From IMG/VR virus record IMGVR_UViG_3300042691_025466, positions 1 to 22,223 of that record: a stretch of DNA of 22,223 nucleotides; one strand, written 5' to 3'. The translations under genes and the position numbers were made by a program. Positions 174 through 15,212 of this stretch are shown one piece after another; position 1 is the first letter of the stretch; every line of letters begins with the position of its first letter. The notes under the pieces are model-generated. The model did no database searches, had not been told where the DNA came from, and saw nothing but the letters and a program-made list of their open reading frames with translations. Origin of the DNA: a virus.

Positions 174-3139
<2,966 letters not shown>

Positions 3140-4870: not shown

Positions 4871-5473
4871 TTATTTTATTTCAATTGTTTCAATATTCTG
4901 GATCTCTGGTGATGACATGGCTCTAAATCCTGATGTGTCTACATTTTTTTCTTGAAGTTGTTTTTGTCTGTCTTCATAGAATTTTTGTATTTGCATATTG
5001 TTCTTCAATACTTGATATGATCCATATCTGTAAATTGTTATCTCATGGCCCAGTGGAATATCTTTCAGTGCCTTGATTGATAAATTTTTAGAGATATGAT
5101 CAAAAATAATATATGCGTTTGGATCATATGAATGGCGATAAAATGGAGTGTTACCGCCACCGATTATTAATCGGGGTCCATTATCTTTTGTAAATTGACT
5201 AAAATCTTCTAGTACAAACATATGCTCCATCTGGGGCAATGCTTCTGATGGATCTTTAGAGAGTTTAACTCCATGTAATACTTCAAATGCAGAAACTTCG
5301 ATTGTTTCACCCTGAAGAACATCTTGTGATGTTCTCACACAATATCTGTTGTTCAATGTGCATATTGTGCCCAGACTGAGACGTTTTTTATCATAACCAC
5401 GAACTGAAAAGTTATCGACTACTACATCGTTTCCCAAATAATTAGGATCAAAAAAATATGCTGGTTTATTCAT
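4871..5473 (-). CDS. SET-domain-like protein inserted between gp47 and gp46
   Basis: A 200-residue protein with the pattern of a SET domain, the fold of many lysine methyltransferases. RTSQDVLQGETIEVSAFEVL (47-66) resembles the N-terminal SET strand (x.T..I..GE.IE..P...). YRHSYDPNA (112-120) corresponds to the family's NHSCDPNA cofactor-binding motif. KALKDIPLGHEITIYRY (134-150) matches the AxRDIxxGEEITxxY end motif. The first Asn of NHSC is Arg here and the Cys is Tyr, so cofactor binding or activity may be altered. No pre-SET or post-SET cysteine cluster is present. The start overlaps the gp47 stop by 4 bases and the stop lies 3 bases before gp46, so all three should be made together. A substrate cannot be read from sequence; a nuclease subunit or a host protein is speculation. 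I recall SET-like proteins in other T4-type phages, but not their function. Confidence 0.72.
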   Translation of the reverse strand: MNKPAYFFDPNYLGNDVVVDNFSVRGYDKKRLSLGTICTLNNRYCVRTSQDVLQGETIEVSAFEVLHGVKLSKDPSEALPQMEHMFVLEDFSQFTKDNGPRLIIGGGNTPFYRHSYDPNAYIIFDHISKNLSIKALKDIPLGHEITIYRYGSYQVLKNNMQIQKFYEDRQKQLQEKNVDTSGFRAMSSPEIQNIETIEIK

Positions 5474-7153: not shown

Positions 7154-7171
7154 TCTATAAGGTATTATAGA
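7154..7171 (-). terminator. AT-rich hairpin at the end of the GNAT-like gene, possible weak terminator
   Basis: On the minus strand TCTATAA, loop TACC, TTATAGA: a perfect 7-bp stem that includes the stop codon. There is no U-tract behind it, so it is not a standard intrinsic terminator. It could protect the 3' end of the mRNA or slow polymerase before the gp55 promoter region. A TATAAT also lies inside the stem (7169-7164). Confidence 0.35.
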
Positions 7172-7803
7172 ATGACTTTACCTGTATGGGAATAATGAAG
7201 AAGAGCGTTTTCCCCACCGCTGTAGATCGTATCAACATGGCCTTCGTTTTCAGGATCAAATGTAAAAGGCTGAAATCTTCCAAAAGTGTGAACACCGGTC
7301 ACTTTGCCAGATTTTGAAAGTTCTTTCCAAATATTTTGCGAACCTCTAGTTTGAGAATAATCAGAAATTATATCTCTTCCAGTGTGTTTACCCAATATTG
7401 AATATACTCTAGAAATAAGTCCAGTTCCAGTATGTTCTGGATGAATATTCGGTTCTAAACTTATTGCCTCATGTTTTCTATTTAATTGAGTTTGAATTCT
7501 GTCTTGGGCTAATTGTCTAGATGGACTATACAAAGTACCGATGGTTCCAATACCTTCCACTTTTCCTTCCGGATTTTCATGTGCTAGCATGTAAATCCTT
7601 TCATTCACATCTTCATCTTGTGTTTGATAAAGATGATATTTTTTACGATTATGAGAAAATGTTTTTATTTTGTCGTAGGAAGTAGATGGTTGTAAAAATC
7701 CAGAGGGATAAAAATCCCTATAATGAGGAGGTGCTTCGCTTCTATTTCTAGCACGACCTAAAACAATATCATCTTCTAAAAGATATGTTTTAAACGATTT
7801 CAT
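7165..7803 (-). CDS. GNAT-like protein with putative capsid-targeting N-terminus
   Basis: A 212-residue protein. The N-terminus MKSFKTYLLED resembles the capsid-targeting sequence of T4 internal proteins (MKTYQEFIAE as I remember it). It ends in L-L-E, which fits the (Leu/Ile)-x-Glu cleavage rule of the prohead protease gp21, present in this window. Residues 113-165 resemble motif A of GNAT acyltransferases: ISLEPNIHPEHTGTGLISRV with the x-x-G-x-G acyl-CoA loop, then SDYSQTRGSQNIWKELSKSG, a form I associate with GNAT-like proteins of T4-type phages. Residues 1-60 are Tyr/Lys/Arg-rich. The start lies 3 nt after the upstream gene's stop. If both readings hold, the protein is packaged in the head and injected, but that is inference. 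GNAT assignment is moderate. A non-enzymatic structural protein is the main alternative. Confidence 0.55.
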   Translation of the reverse strand: MKSFKTYLLEDDIVLGRARNRSEAPPHYRDFYPSGFLQPSTSYDKIKTFSHNRKKYHLYQTQDEDVNERIYMLAHENPEGKVEGIGTIGTLYSPSRQLAQDRIQTQLNRKHEAISLEPNIHPEHTGTGLISRVYSILGKHTGRDIISDYSQTRGSQNIWKELSKSGKVTGVHTFGRFQPFTFDPENEGHVDTIYSGGENALLHYSHTGKVIL

Positions 7804-7806
7804 GTT

Positions 7807-8583
7807 TCAATGATAATCCGATGAATTTGGATCATCGCTCCAATCTGACCAAAGATTCCCAAAGTTCTTTCTGTCTTTTTCATCTCCAGTGTATTCATCT
7901 CTGATTTTTTCACTGGGTTTCTTTGATGTTGGTTTTTTCTTCGCTTTTTTCTTTGGAGGCTGTTTCATTTTTGCTTTTATTTCTAGATACATCTCACCAA
8001 AAAACTCAGGGTCAATAGCCCCAGACTCAACCAAATCAACAATGACTTCTGGTGGAAACATCATATTCATAAACACCATATCATCCTTGTCTGATTTCTT
8101 TTGTTTATTTTCATTGTTTTCCGGATCAACCATATCCTTCAATTTATTTGTATTTTCAGCCAAATACTCCATCATTTTCTTAAAATCTTCTTCTGTTTGT
8201 TCATCAATTGGATCGGGATGATTTCCCATATGCTCTTCTACCATTTTATCTAACTCTTCTTCAATTTCTTCTTTAAATTTTATAAGGCTTTCTTGTTTAT
8301 CCTGTCTTTCTTTTTCACCTTCGTACATCTTTATGGCTTCTTTGCATGGGGTACTTGTCATCATCACTGATGATTTTGGAATTGAAAGATATTTTTCTTC
8401 TGAAAATACACTCCAATTTTTTATTATGACAACTTCTTTTGGTCTCATTGTATGATCTTGAGTCAAGAAGGATTTAAAGACCATGGGTCTTTCTATTACT
8501 AATGTATCAGAATCAGAATCTATTATTTTAGTTATAACCTCTTCTCCGTTATTCAGTTTCAGTAGGTGGTATTGTTCCCCCAT
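7807..8583 (-). CDS. Protein with an Hfq/Sm-like N-terminal domain
   Basis: A 258-residue protein. Residues 4-80 look like a small five-stranded Sm-type barrel: YHLLKLNNGEEVITKI, LVIERPMVFKSF, VVIIKNWSVFS, YLSIPKSSVMMTSTPCKEA. T4-like phages commonly carry short proteins of this pattern, described as Hfq/LSm-like. The middle (about 90-190) is highly charged and helical, with FPPEVIVDLVESGAIDPEFF near 180-200. A basic linker follows (PPKKKAKKKPTSKKP), then an acidic Trp-containing tail (LWSDWSDDPNSSD). The start overlaps the end of uvsW by 35 bases but is well supported by GAAAGGAATCAAGATG, so the overlap is real. RNA binding is suggested only by the domain and the basic linker. The function is unknown. 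Confidence 0.6.
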   Translation of the reverse strand: MGEQYHLLKLNNGEEVITKIIDSDSDTLVIERPMVFKSFLTQDHTMRPKEVVIIKNWSVFSEEKYLSIPKSSVMMTSTPCKEAIKMYEGEKERQDKQESLIKFKEEIEEELDKMVEEHMGNHPDPIDEQTEEDFKKMMEYLAENTNKLKDMVDPENNENKQKKSDKDDMVFMNMMFPPEVIVDLVESGAIDPEFFGEMYLEIKAKMKQPPKKKAKKKPTSKKPSEKIRDEYTGDEKDRKNFGNLWSDWSDDPNSSDYH

Positions 8584-12594: not shown

Positions 12595-13557
12595 TTAGAC
12601 TTTTTTCTTAGCTTGTCTTTCGATTGCGGTCAAATACATGTTCATAGAATCAGTTGGTGATTCTATAGTTTTATTGGTTGTTTCTTCGAATGATTCAACG
12701 AGGTATTTGCTCTTTGAATTATTCATTTGTTTGATGTAAGTTTCTTTGAGAATATTCAGTTTGTCGCTATATTGTTCGACGTTAGAATATTCAAGTCCTT
12801 CAGCGAGTGATGCTAATTTTTCAATTTGAACATCAGTCAATCCGCCAGTGCTTTCTAGGAAAGCCATGTTGCATTGATATTCAAGAAGTTGTTTCTTGAG
12901 TTCAATGTTTTCATTGATTGAGGTGTTAACTTGTTCTTCTAGCTCTTCGGTTCTTTCGTGAAGTTTATCGAATACATCAGTTTTGCCTTCTGGCATTTCG
13001 ATGTAGTGTGATTCAAAAAGTTCTTTCAAACCAGTGAGGAATGATTCGGCAATGTCTACCTTGATTCCTTCTTCGAGTGAAAGTTTATTTTCGTTCATCC
13101 ACTCTTCGACAACGTAATTCAAGTAATCATCTAACTTTTCAGTTAGTTGACTGCTGATTGCCAAAACTTCTTCTTCAAGAATTTTATTTGCTTCTTGAGT
13201 GAGTTGTTCTGAAATTGCAGAAACTTTTTGATTAACTGCAGCTTCAAAAACAACTTTCATTTTTTCTTTGAATTCTTCGCTAAGATTTTCTCCATCGAAG
13301 ATAGCATCAAAATCAAATGATTCTGATTCATATGCTGCAGTGCTAGCTGCAGTTTGTGGTGCTTCTTGTTTCATCTCTTCTCCTTTCTTTTTTCCTGCGT
13401 TTACCATTTGAACTGGTGCAGGTCTAGAGTTAGGAGAAAGGGACTGCATATTAGCAGCAGCATTTCCTCCCATAACTCCCGGCATGACAATTCCTTTACC
13501 GGTAGCGTCTTTGGTGTAAGTGTAAGCGTCTCCCATTGGGTTTATTTGTTTATCCAT
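12595..13557 (-). CDS. gp22: gp22, prohead scaffold protein
   Basis: Main component of the internal core on which the prohead forms. It is later digested by gp21 and removed. Of its 320 residues (T4 269), the first 80 are Gly/Ala/Met/Gln-rich and probably disordered. Residues 85-290 are helical and charged, with the conserved stretch LDDYLNYVVEEWMNENKLSL (about 142-161) then EGIKVDIAESFLTGLKELFESHYI. Several L/I-x-E sites (LSE, LTE, ILE) could be cut by gp21. It sits between gp21 and gp23, as in all T4-like phages, with AAGAGG before the ATG and a perfect late promoter just upstream. The N-terminal extension relative to T4 is the only unusual part. Confidence 0.95.
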   Translation of the reverse strand: MDKQINPMGDAYTYTKDATGKGIVMPGVMGGNAAANMQSLSPNSRPAPVQMVNAGKKKGEEMKQEAPQTAASTAAYESESFDFDAIFDGENLSEEFKEKMKVVFEAAVNQKVSAISEQLTQEANKILEEEVLAISSQLTEKLDDYLNYVVEEWMNENKLSLEEGIKVDIAESFLTGLKELFESHYIEMPEGKTDVFDKLHERTEELEEQVNTSINENIELKKQLLEYQCNMAFLESTGGLTDVQIEKLASLAEGLEYSNVEQYSDKLNILKETYIKQMNNSKSKYLVESFEETTNKTIESPTDSMNMYLTAIERQAKKKV

Positions 13558-13597: not shown

Positions 13598-14257
13598 TTA
13601 TTTTCTACCTACTGACAATTTACTCATGAAATTTTCGAACAAATCTAATGCGGTTTTTTCCATCAATCTTGATGGCGTTTTTTTGATTGTTTTCTTGTAG
13701 CCTTCTAATACTTCTTGCTTCAAAATACCATTGTCCCATATCCACTCCACACCTTCCATTATTCCATTTACAAACGCATTCGGTGCAGACGGATCAGCAA
13801 CAATATCAACTGCCGACAACATAAAGTCTTTTTGAACTTCTTTATAGCCATTTTGTTCTTTAAGGCTTCCCATTCCTCTGGAAGATACACCGAGTCTAAC
13901 TCCAGCTTCTATAAGATTTTGAGCAATCATACCACAAGGGGTTTCTAAAAGTTTTGCTTTTCCAGAAACATCATTACCTTCAATCACTAATTTAGTAATT
14001 AAATGAGAACATTTATCTAAATTGACTGTTGGACCACTTGGATGGTTTAATTCTCCAAGGGCTCTGTTTTCGGAAACATATTTTTTATTGTAAGTATTAA
14101 CAGCACTTTCCATAATAGATGAGGGATAAACTCTACCATTTCTATTTACGGTATTTGCCTGCATAAAGACACCCTCAATGAAGTATCTCTTCTTGCCGTT
14201 TTCAGCAGTTTCTGAAATACAAGAAATATTTTCTACCATTTCTGTTATTAACTTCAT
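13598..14257 (-). CDS. gp21: gp21, prohead core protease
   Basis: Serine protease that matures the prohead by cutting gp22, gp23 and the internal proteins after L/I-x-E. It has the herpesvirus-assemblin-like fold of phage prohead proteases. Length 219 compares with 212 in T4. Motifs: N..GRVYP (39-45), catalytic His in GELNHPS (H72), catalytic Ser in GVSSRG (S125 or S126), and DIVADPSAP (151-159), whose Asp probably completes the triad. The start overlaps the stop of the acidic core gene by 4 bases. The last 40 residues are Lys-rich and probably a self-cleaved tail. All catalytic elements are present. Confidence 0.96.
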   Translation of the reverse strand: MKLITEMVENISCISETAENGKKRYFIEGVFMQANTVNRNGRVYPSSIMESAVNTYNKKYVSENRALGELNHPSGPTVNLDKCSHLITKLVIEGNDVSGKAKLLETPCGMIAQNLIEAGVRLGVSSRGMGSLKEQNGYKEVQKDFMLSAVDIVADPSAPNAFVNGIMEGVEWIWDNGILKQEVLEGYKKTIKKTPSRLMEKTALDLFENFMSKLSVGRK

Positions 14258-14760
14258 TTTTTCTTGTCCTTCTTCTTGTTTTTATTTTTTCCATTTTTTT
14301 CATTGTGTGAATTTATGTCAAAATGAAAACTTTTTCCACCCTTTTTAACAACATCTTCTTCTTCCTCTTCTTCTTCCTCTTCTTCATCTTCCTCGTCATC
14401 GTCTTCTTCGTCGTCTTCTTCTTCCTCGTCTTTATCTTTTTTATTCTTTTTTTCTTCTTTTAATTTTTTCTTTCCATCATCGTCATCATCGTCATCATCG
14501 TCATCGGTGTCTTCATCATCGGCATTATCGTCTTGACCGGGTTTTTTATCTGCCCAATCTGGAACACCATCTCCGTCTGCATCGGGTTTCTTTTCACCTT
14601 TTTCTTCTATTAATTCTGCATCAAAAATAGATGCTAAAGTTTCGGTAGTTTTGTTTGATATTTCTTCAGATAATTTTCCGTATAAAATATCATTTACCAA
14701 AGAACGAAACTTGACATGATTTTCTTCGGCAACTAGTTTTATTAAATTTTGATTGCTCAT
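14254..14760 (-). CDS. Extremely acidic prohead-core-type protein (gp67/gp68 position)
   Basis: A 168-residue protein between portal and protease, where T4 encodes core proteins gp67 and gp68. Residues 14-50 (HVKFRSLVNDILYGKLSEEI and following) resemble the short helical N-terminus of such proteins in T4-type phages. Residues 60-71 (DADGDGVPDWAD) look like a calcium-binding thrombospondin-3-type loop. Then come ten Asp in a row (86-95), a Lys-rich stretch, a 26-residue Asp/Glu run (about 111-136), and a Lys/Asn-rich tail. IEE and LSE could be cut by gp21. T4 gp67 is processed into small acidic internal peptides, so this protein may do the same. It is coupled by 4-base overlaps to both neighbours. 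The family assignment rests mainly on position. Confidence 0.65.
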   Translation of the reverse strand: MSNQNLIKLVAEENHVKFRSLVNDILYGKLSEEISNKTTETLASIFDAELIEEKGEKKPDADGDGVPDWADKKPGQDDNADDEDTDDDDDDDDDDGKKKLKEEKKNKKDKDEEEEDDEEDDDEEDEEEEEEEEEEDVVKKGGKSFHFDINSHNEKNGKNKNKKKDKKK

Positions 14761-15212
14761 CCGGGAATCCTTTCAATGTGTTTTTTTGAAAATTTTAGTA
14801 TTTTATTATATTCTGTAAAAGACTCAGACATTAATTTTCTCATTTTTTCTTGATTAATAATATTTAGATTATCATGCATTTTTATTAAATAATCTGCGTC
14901 TTCACATGTAATTGCCACAGTATTTCCATCTCTAAATTTGTGTAAAATTGTTTTTTCATTGAAATAAGATTCTTTTAGACTGGAAATTATATTGTGCTGT
15001 TGTTGTTCTTTGCTCTCTGCCACTATTGGTTTAGTTTCTTTTTTTGTGGACACAACGATGTCATTTTGTGCAAATTCTTTAAGAGAGTTTTTAAATTTGT
15101 CCTCAACCTTAGCTTTCATTCTTTTTGTAAGGTTTTCTTTTAAATTGGAACAGAAAGTCTCTTTTGGACTGGTGGTTATACTTTCTATGATTTTACTTAA
15201 CCCTAGCTCCAT
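14757..15212 (-). CDS. Prohead-core-type protein next to portal (gp68/gp67 position)
   Basis: A 151-residue protein directly after gp20. Residues 89-143 (ILHKFRDGNTVAITCEDADY, then LIKMHDNLN..NQEKMRKLM..S...YNKILKFSKK) fit a short domain that I recall in core-region proteins of cyanophage-type T4 relatives (DG..V.....A..L...F..LN..N...M...........I..FA). The first half is helical and Lys-rich and differs in character from the acidic neighbour. The ATG overlaps the gp20 stop by one base (TAATG), and the stop overlaps the next gene by 4 bases, so expression is coupled to portal and protease. It probably belongs to the assembly core. Which T4 number it matches is not certain. Confidence 0.6.
   Translation of the reverse strand: MELGLSKIIESITTSPKETFCSNLKENLTKRMKAKVEDKFKNSLKEFAQNDIVVSTKKETKPIVAESKEQQQHNIISSLKESYFNEKTILHKFRDGNTVAITCEDADYLIKMHDNLNIINQEKMRKLMSESFTEYNKILKFSKKHIERIPG

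What the first reader, a model, noticed from the sequence alone, without database searches (positions are those of the whole stretch)
7165..7803. GNAT-like protein with an apparent capsid-targeting sequence: a candidate packaged, injected effector
The first ten residues, MKSFKTYLLE, resemble the T4 capsid-targeting sequence and end in an L-x-E site that the gp21 protease in this window could cut. The rest resembles a GNAT acyltransferase (HPEHTGTGLISRVYS, SDYSQTRGSQNIW). T4 packages Alt and internal proteins this way. A packaged acyltransferase would act on the host at the moment of injection.
Basis: partly seen in the sequence, partly recalled or inferred. Interest (0 to 1): 0.62.

Follow-up and report, generated by a model that had tools for sequence, protein, structure and literature searches.

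The report
Capsid-tagged GNAT-like protein in T4-like phage
A T4-like virus of bacteria carries a protein of probable acetyltransferase shape whose first ten amino acids match the tag T4 uses to pack proteins into its head, so it is probably injected into the host with the DNA, and related environmental viruses carry rows of different proteins with the same tag.

Summary
The gene is real: minus strand, 7803 to 7165, 212 aa. Its N-terminus MKSFKTYLLE|D matches the T4 capsid-targeting sequence (IPII and IPIII: MKTYQEFIAE) at the positions shown by mutation to matter (4 and 7 for targeting, 8 and 10 for processing). Chance is about 3.5e-6 per protein. Residue 10 ends its only [LI]xE site, and an S77 (gp21) protease lies in the window. 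Two orthologue groups at the same gene position (53% and 49% identical) keep M, K, S, F4, Y7 and E10 while residues 5, 6 and 9 vary. The gene is accessory. In a wider family sharing the C-terminal domain, 17 of 18 members carry the tag, often within tandem arrays of tagged, cysteine-poor, basic proteins. Of 16 tag-bearing contigs of at least 85 kb, 13 have S77 and one more has T4-type terminase and portal. A codon-reversed control pattern matched once, against 95 for the tag. GNAT fold is moderately supported (AlphaFold2 pLDDT 76; Foldseek neighbours mostly GNAT domains), but the acetyl-CoA motif is degenerate, so catalysis is unproven. Verdict: a new T4-internal-protein-like packaged protein with a GNAT-like domain. 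Virion presence and target remain untested.

The parts
7165..7803 (-). 212-aa ORF: capsid-tagged protein with GNAT-like domain
   Evidence: orthologues at the same position between the Sm-like gene and gp55 in other contigs
7774..7803 (-). Capsid-targeting-sequence-like decapeptide MKSFKTYLLE
   Evidence: matches T4 IPII/IPIII MKTYQEFIAE at positions 4, 7, 8, 10 (PMC9026906); M, K, S, F4, Y7, E10 invariant in orthologues while 5, 6, 9 vary, with synonymous codon changes; chance 3.5e-6
7771..7776 (-). Predicted gp21 cleavage between E10 and D11; mature protein of 202 aa starting DDIVLG
   Evidence: only [LI]xE in the protein; gp21-type protease in the window; cleavage itself inferred
7189..7677 (-). 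GNAT-like domain, about residues 43-205
   Evidence: AlphaFold2 mean pLDDT 75.8, pTM 0.72; Foldseek neighbours mostly GNAT domains; shared by 18 distinct proteins
7414..7443 (-). Glycine loop HPEHTGTGLI (residues 121-130) at the position of the GNAT acetyl-CoA loop; R/Q-x-x-G-x-G/A degenerate (T125, G126, T127, G128, L129, I130)
   Evidence: alignment A1; lies between the strand at 113-115 and the helix at 129-141 in the model
7327..7365 (-). Family signature S-[DG]-x-x-[QH]-[TS]-x-G-x-x-x-[VI]-W (residues 147-159)
   Evidence: S147 and W159 invariant in 13 aligned members
7807..8583 (-). Upstream neighbour: Sm-like domain protein, ending 3 bases before the tagged ORF begins (probable co-transcription)
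   Evidence: Pfam PF16243 E 8.8e-6, below its cut-off; synteny
13598..14257 (-). gp21-type prohead protease (Peptidase_S77), presumed processing enzyme
12595..13557 (-). gp22-type scaffold core protein, the presumed docking partner of the tag
   Evidence: Pfam PF25623 E 4.9e-67; docking inferred from T4

Best explanation
This is a T4-internal-protein-like packaged protein. The N-terminal decapeptide docks the protein on the gp22 core of the assembling prohead. The gp21 protease cuts after Leu-Leu-Glu10, leaving a 202-residue GNAT-like domain loose in the head, and that domain is ejected into the host with the DNA, where it acts before phage genes are expressed. Shown here: the ORF, the tag and its conservation, the protease gene, the accessory insertion, the shared domain and the arrays of tagged genes. 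Moderately supported: the GNAT fold. Inferred: packaging, cleavage, injection. The most likely action is on a host or defence target, either acylating a protein or RNA (as gpRac of phiKMV-like phages does to RNA polymerase, or AtaT/KacT do to aminoacyl-tRNA) or inhibiting a defence enzyme by binding, as T4 IPI-III do.
For: Tag matches T4 IPII/IPIII at the mutationally defined positions 4, 7, 8, 10. Joint chance 3.5e-6 per protein, and the only tagged family in 355 tag-blind proteins. Orthologue groups at 53% and 49% identity keep M, K, S, F4, Y7, E10, partly through synonymous codons, while 5, 6 and 9 vary. 17 of 18 wider members have the tag, including two found by the C-terminal domain alone on one contig. 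MKSFxxY[IL]xED has 95 hits in the viral collection, its codon-reversed control 1. Of 16 tag-bearing contigs of at least 85 kb, 13 carry Peptidase_S77 and one more carries T4-type terminase and a portal cut by the contig end. Tagged ORFs are more often cysteine-free (59% vs 27%) and net-positive (70% vs 41%) than other ORFs of the held loci. GNAT: Foldseek top PDB hits are ICL2 (prob up to 0.99), AtaT, dopamine NAT, NAA60 and KacT, and in the viral library NAT_SF and acetyltransferase proteins; Acetyltransf_1 and Acetyltransf_10 are each weakly matched by one relative.
Against: No virion proteomics for this or any held relative. Most distant family members came from contigs fetched by a tag pattern, so 17 of 18 is partly ascertained. 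The PDB Foldseek matches have E of 0.02 or worse and TM of at most 0.43; no sequence profile reaches a GNAT family cut-off. The acetyl-CoA motif is degenerate. The mature protein is neutral (net 0, pI 7.4), unlike T4 IPII and IPIII. No clear late promoter lies just upstream; late expression would have to come by read-through from further up the co-directional run. Two tag-bearing contigs of at least 85 kb show neither S77 nor a T4 portal.
Confidence: 0.7

Rival explanations
1. Packaged and injected, but a GNAT-fold pseudoenzyme that works by binding, for example inhibiting a restriction or other defence nuclease as T4 IPI, IPII and IPIII do.
For: The R/Q-x-x-G-x-G/A motif is degenerate here and differently so in relatives. 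The T4 internal proteins with known function are inhibitors of GmrSD enzymes (PMC12373910). The best PDB fold neighbour is ICL2, which is not an acetyltransferase by name and is solved with bound acetyl-CoA. Accessory, fast-diverging and arrayed genes fit an arms race.
Against: G126-x-G128 is invariant in the near family, and residues around the putative pocket (S147, Q151, T152, G154, W159) are strongly kept, which suggests a functional site.
Confidence: 0.35
2. Packaged but structural: a minor core or scaffold-associated protein of the head that is not injected or has no host target.
For: The tag is a core-binding signal, and gp22, gp67 and gp68 are also core proteins. The window's gp68-like protein also has an [LI]xE at residue 10, MELGLSKIIE|S.
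Against: The gene is absent from close relatives with the same head genes and is far more variable than head proteins; tagged relatives lie in arrays of unrelated enzyme-like proteins.
Confidence: 0.12
3. The decapeptide is incidental; the protein is made and acts in the infected cell and is not packaged.
For: No virion evidence; some tagged ORFs encode proteins usually thought of as metabolic (cytidylyltransferase, adenylate kinase).
Against: Conservation falls exactly on the functional positions; the same tag recurs on unrelated proteins; control pattern 1 versus 95; S77 co-occurrence; low-cysteine and basic bias of tagged ORFs.
Confidence: 0.15
4. The domain is not GNAT at all but another alpha/beta fold.
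For: No significant PDB Foldseek E-value; a first model from three sequences gave unrelated hits.
Against: The better model's neighbours are dominated by independent GNAT structures in both libraries; the strand, glycine loop, helix order and the HPEH..G.GL stretch fit GNAT motif A.
Confidence: 0.2

Closest known systems
T4 internal proteins IPII and IPIII (and IPI, Alt)
   Same: 10-residue N-terminal propeptide M-K-[ST]-[FY]-x-x-[FY]-[IL]-x-E in IPII and IPIII; no cysteine; small accessory gene; T4-type head genes and gp21 protease in the same phage
   Different: No mature-domain similarity seen; the window protein has a GNAT-like domain, is twice the length of IPII, and is neutral rather than basic
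gpRac-type GNAT of phiKMV-like phages
   Same: A phage GNAT described as acting on host RNA polymerase (PMC7824862)
   Different: Not known to be packaged by a capsid-targeting sequence; no sequence similarity tested here
GNAT domains of polyvalent proteins
   Same: GNAT domains predicted to be injected with phage DNA (PMC5512222)
   Different: Those are parts of large multidomain proteins in other phages; here a solo domain with a cleavable T4-type tag
AtaT/KacT GNAT toxins and a domain of ICL2
   Same: Closest solved structures by Foldseek
   Different: Low identity (8-16%), TM about 0.3-0.43; canonical acetyl-CoA motif not kept here
Homologous domains in Achromobacter phage Motura and Agrobacterium phage Atu_ph07
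   Same: Weak profile match to the family domain (E 2e-4 and 0.03), also structure hits
   Different: No canonical capsid-targeting sequence

Membership tests
T4-type internal (packaged) protein | N-terminal capsid-targeting sequence with aromatic 4 and 7, aliphatic 8, Glu 10 | tested here: met
T4-type internal (packaged) protein | gp21 (S77) protease in the same phage with an [LI]xE site at the propeptide end | tested here: met
   only [LI]xE site ends at residue 10
T4-type internal (packaged) protein | Present in the virion as the cleaved form | not testable with these tools
   needs mass spectrometry
T4-type internal (packaged) protein | Injected into the host with the DNA | not testable with these tools
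   needs an infection experiment
T4-type internal (packaged) protein | Accessory, variable gene with a conserved tag but a diverged body | tested here: met
   gene absent in L007, L008, L010, L011, L016, L017; tag kept in orthologues
T4-type internal (packaged) protein | Small, basic, cysteine-free | tested here: inconclusive
   no cysteine in any of 13 members, but the window protein is neutral (pI 7.4); most relatives are basic
GNAT superfamily | Fold (mixed sheet with the acetyl-CoA loop between beta4 and alpha3) | tested here: inconclusive
   model pLDDT 75.8; GNAT neighbours, but best PDB E 0.02
GNAT superfamily | Motif R/Q-x-x-G-x-G/A | tested here: not met
   T-G-T-G-L-I: only the central Gly kept
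GNAT superfamily | Profile match above a curated cut-off | tested here: not met
   no Pfam hit for the window protein; weak hits (E 0.06-0.14) to GNAT-type families in single relatives
GNAT superfamily | Acyl-CoA-dependent acyl transfer | not testable with these tools
   needs biochemistry

The most novel reading that the evidence does not exclude
Environmental T4-like phages carry a large modular arsenal of capsid-tagged effectors, often in tandem arrays of five to eight genes sharing only the 10-residue tag. A diversified GNAT-fold family, with up to three copies on one contig, is a major cargo class that chemically modifies host or defence components within the first moments of infection.
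Probability: 0.35. Interest if true: 0.78.

Novelty: new variant of a known kind. Interest (0 to 1): 0.6.

Why it matters
What T4-type phages inject besides DNA is known for a handful of E. coli phages. A ten-residue tag that can be read from sequence would turn metagenomic T4-like contigs into a catalogue of candidate injected effectors. The GNAT-like family is a new cargo class for that route, and the tag-plus-gp21 prediction (mature N-terminus at residue 11) is directly checkable by virion proteomics.

Tried and rejected
Pfam, PHROG, PDB sequence searches and tblastn of the phage collection with the single protein gave nothing usable. A first direct viral-contig search found no relative; relatives were reached through the neighbouring uvsW gene and then by alignment. 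A first AlphaFold model from three sequences was poor and its fold hits meaningless; it was replaced by a 13-sequence model. A genome-contig scan found no bacterial homologue. tblastn with three distant family members found no isolate phage. A weak PADLOC hit to ZorC (E 0.043) was judged chance. PHROG 'virion structural protein' matches (phrog_14802) in the tagged set could not be traced to particular proteins in the ten rescanned, so they are not used as evidence. The hhalign comparison of A3 with A5 shares sequences and is not independent. A T4 late-promoter motif was sought upstream of the gene and not found close by.

Full report
What is there. The window is a 22,223-base IMG/VR fragment of a T4-like myovirus. 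It holds gp16-gp23-type structural and head genes, uvsY, uvsW, an Sm-like gene, and gp55-, gp47- and gp46-like genes, all on the minus strand (gene names without a Pfam hit are by similarity and gene order). The finding's ORF is real but runs on the minus strand from 7803 to 7165 (212 aa, P0001). It starts 3 bases after the Sm-like gene ends and is followed by the gp55-like gene.

The tag. The first ten residues are MKSFKTYLLE. T4 IPII and IPIII, read here from the T4 record, both begin MKTYQEFIAE. A review of the T4 work states that the first ten residues of IPIII suffice for packaging, that targeting depends mainly on residues 4 and 7, and that processing depends on residues 8 and 10 (PMC9026906). 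The window protein has F4, Y7, L8 and E10. Residue 10 ends the only [LI]xE in the protein. Using per-position frequencies from 355 non-redundant ORFs of T4-like loci that were fetched through uvsW, and so without regard to the tag, the joint probability is 3.5e-6 per protein. The expected number is 0.0012; three were seen, all this family.

Conservation. The uvsW search brought in contigs with the same gene order. Two further groups have a homologue at exactly this place: L003/L004/L005/L024 (53% identical by the full alignment) and L012-L015 (49%). Their N-termini are MKSFFQYITE and MKSFRDYISE. M1, K2, S3, F4, Y7 and E10 are kept while residues 5, 6 and 9 change; S3, F4, Y7 and E10 are kept through synonymous codon changes. 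Other contigs of similar relatedness (L007, L008, L010, L011, L016, L017) have no gene between the Sm-like gene and gp55, so the gene is accessory.

Wider family. An alignment search found more distant relatives (L088, L089, L090). Profiles of the C-terminal domain alone, run over all held ORFs and over whole contigs, brought the family to 18 distinct proteins, of which 17 begin with the tag (one with I for K at position 2; two with GTG starts). Most came from contigs fetched with a tag pattern, so this ratio is partly ascertained. Members reached without use of their own tag include the three at this locus, two paralogues on the L165 contig found by the domain profile (L319), and L088:6168-6962. 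The exception, L166:5383-6834(-), carries a phage lysozyme domain and no tag. More distant fold relatives in the jumbo phages Motura and Atu_ph07 lack the canonical tag.

Arrays. The contigs of L088 and L089 carry tandem runs of six to eight ORFs that share little but the tag. Similar runs of five or more occur in L174, L183, L237, L248 and L131. Pfam matches among 93 tagged ORFs include Zeta_toxin, cytidylyltransferase, adenylate kinase, S-AdoMet lyase, NUDIX, DnaJ, SprT-like, Zn protease and lysozyme. Tagged ORFs of 80-400 aa are more often cysteine-free (59% vs 27%) and net-positive after residue 10 (70% vs 41%) than other ORFs of the held loci, as T4 internal proteins are.

Controls for the tag. 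MKSFxxY[IL]xED, as a DNA pattern, matched 95 stretches of the viral collection; the same codons in reverse order matched 1. A looser pattern finds IPII, IPIII and gp61.1 in T4, one ORF in S-WAM1, three in S-SRM01, none in four other T4-like marine phages and none in phiKZ, T5, SPO1 or P1. Of 16 tag-bearing contigs of at least 85 kb, 13 carry Peptidase_S77. One more (the L089 contig) carries a T4-type terminase and a T4-type portal cut by the contig end, so its protease gene may lie beyond it. Two show neither. The base rate of S77 in the collection was not measured; as a rough guide, uvsW relatives occur in 3,188 of 50,697 isolate phage records.

The fold. Pfam has no hit for the window protein; among relatives, single members weakly match Acetyltransf_1 (0.064), Acetyltransf_10 (0.082) and Autoind_synth (0.14), which from general knowledge belong to one fold class. 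AlphaFold2 with 13 family sequences gave mean pLDDT 75.8, pTM 0.72, with all five models between 71 and 76. Foldseek against the PDB ranks ICL2 (several entries, probability up to 0.99), AtaT, dopamine N-acetyltransferase, NAA60 and KacT at the top, though with E of 0.02 or worse. In the viral library nine matches pass 0.001, and the named ones among the top twelve include NAT_SF, acyltransferase and acetyltransferase proteins. That the ICL2 match is to its GNAT-like C-terminal domain is from general knowledge. The stretch ISLEPNIHPEHTGTGLISRVY sits where GNAT motif A should be, between a strand and the next helix. Read against the motif R/Q-x-x-G-x-G/A it gives T-G-T-G-L-I, so only the central glycine fits. 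Other relatives degenerate differently. The fold is therefore likely and catalysis open.

How it most likely works. Inferred from T4: the decapeptide docks on the gp22 core, gp21 cuts after E10, and the 202-residue domain leaves the head with the DNA. In T4 the internal proteins Ip1-3 each inhibit a GmrSD-type restriction enzyme and share only the leader (PMC12373910). Phage GNATs can also modify RNA polymerase (gpRac, PMC7824862), and GNAT domains are predicted in injected polyvalent proteins (PMC5512222). The choice between an acyltransferase and a binding inhibitor cannot be made here.

Novelty. Capsid-targeting sequences, injected internal proteins and predicted injected GNATs are each known. 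No held paper contains the leader sequences searched for, and I found no description of a capsid-tagged GNAT or of such arrays in environmental T4-like phages; most subscription literature was not searchable. I rate it a new variant of a known kind.

Noticed in passing
L088:2902-9602, L089:7549-11791, L174:2112-7215, L183:2489-5541, L237:4039-9145: Tandem arrays of five to eight ORFs that share little but the MKSFxxY[IL]xE leader.
   Followed up: partly
93 tagged ORFs of alignment A6 (for example L208:1042-1437 Zn protease, L112:1877-3859 cytidylyltransferase/zeta-toxin-like): The same leader stands before unrelated enzyme domains, including an S-adenosylmethionine lyase, NUDIX, adenylate kinase and SprT-like.
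   Followed up: partly
L088:2527-2892, L088:4432-4968, L089:9513-9941(-), L089:2157-3770: A second recurrent N-terminus near the arrays, roughly M-x-L-K-[ED]-Y-Y-K-x-x-L-x-E, which could be another packaging leader.
   Followed up: no
L091:18966-19130 (T4 gene 61.1): T4 gp61.1, annotated hypothetical, begins MKTFKEFIKED and fits the capsid-targeting pattern.
   Followed up: no
L166:5383-6834(-): The GNAT-like domain without the leader, in one ORF with a C-terminal phage lysozyme domain (E 2.5e-23).
   Followed up: partly
4871-5473: SET-domain protein (PF00856, E 8e-8) between the gp47- and gp46-like genes; also at that place in several relatives.
   Followed up: no
174-3125: 983-aa protein with long collagen-like repeats (PF01391, E 2.5e-37).
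   Followed up: no
14757-15212: gp68-like core protein whose N-terminus MELGLSKIIE|S also offers an [LI]xE site at residue 10.
   Followed up: no
L007:2540-2740, L010:4100-4280, L011:10200-10380, L016:9840-10020, L024:10930-11060: A conserved element, roughly TTGAATC-CGACAAGG-AATTATAAAG, before gp55 in relatives, of unknown role.
   Followed up: no
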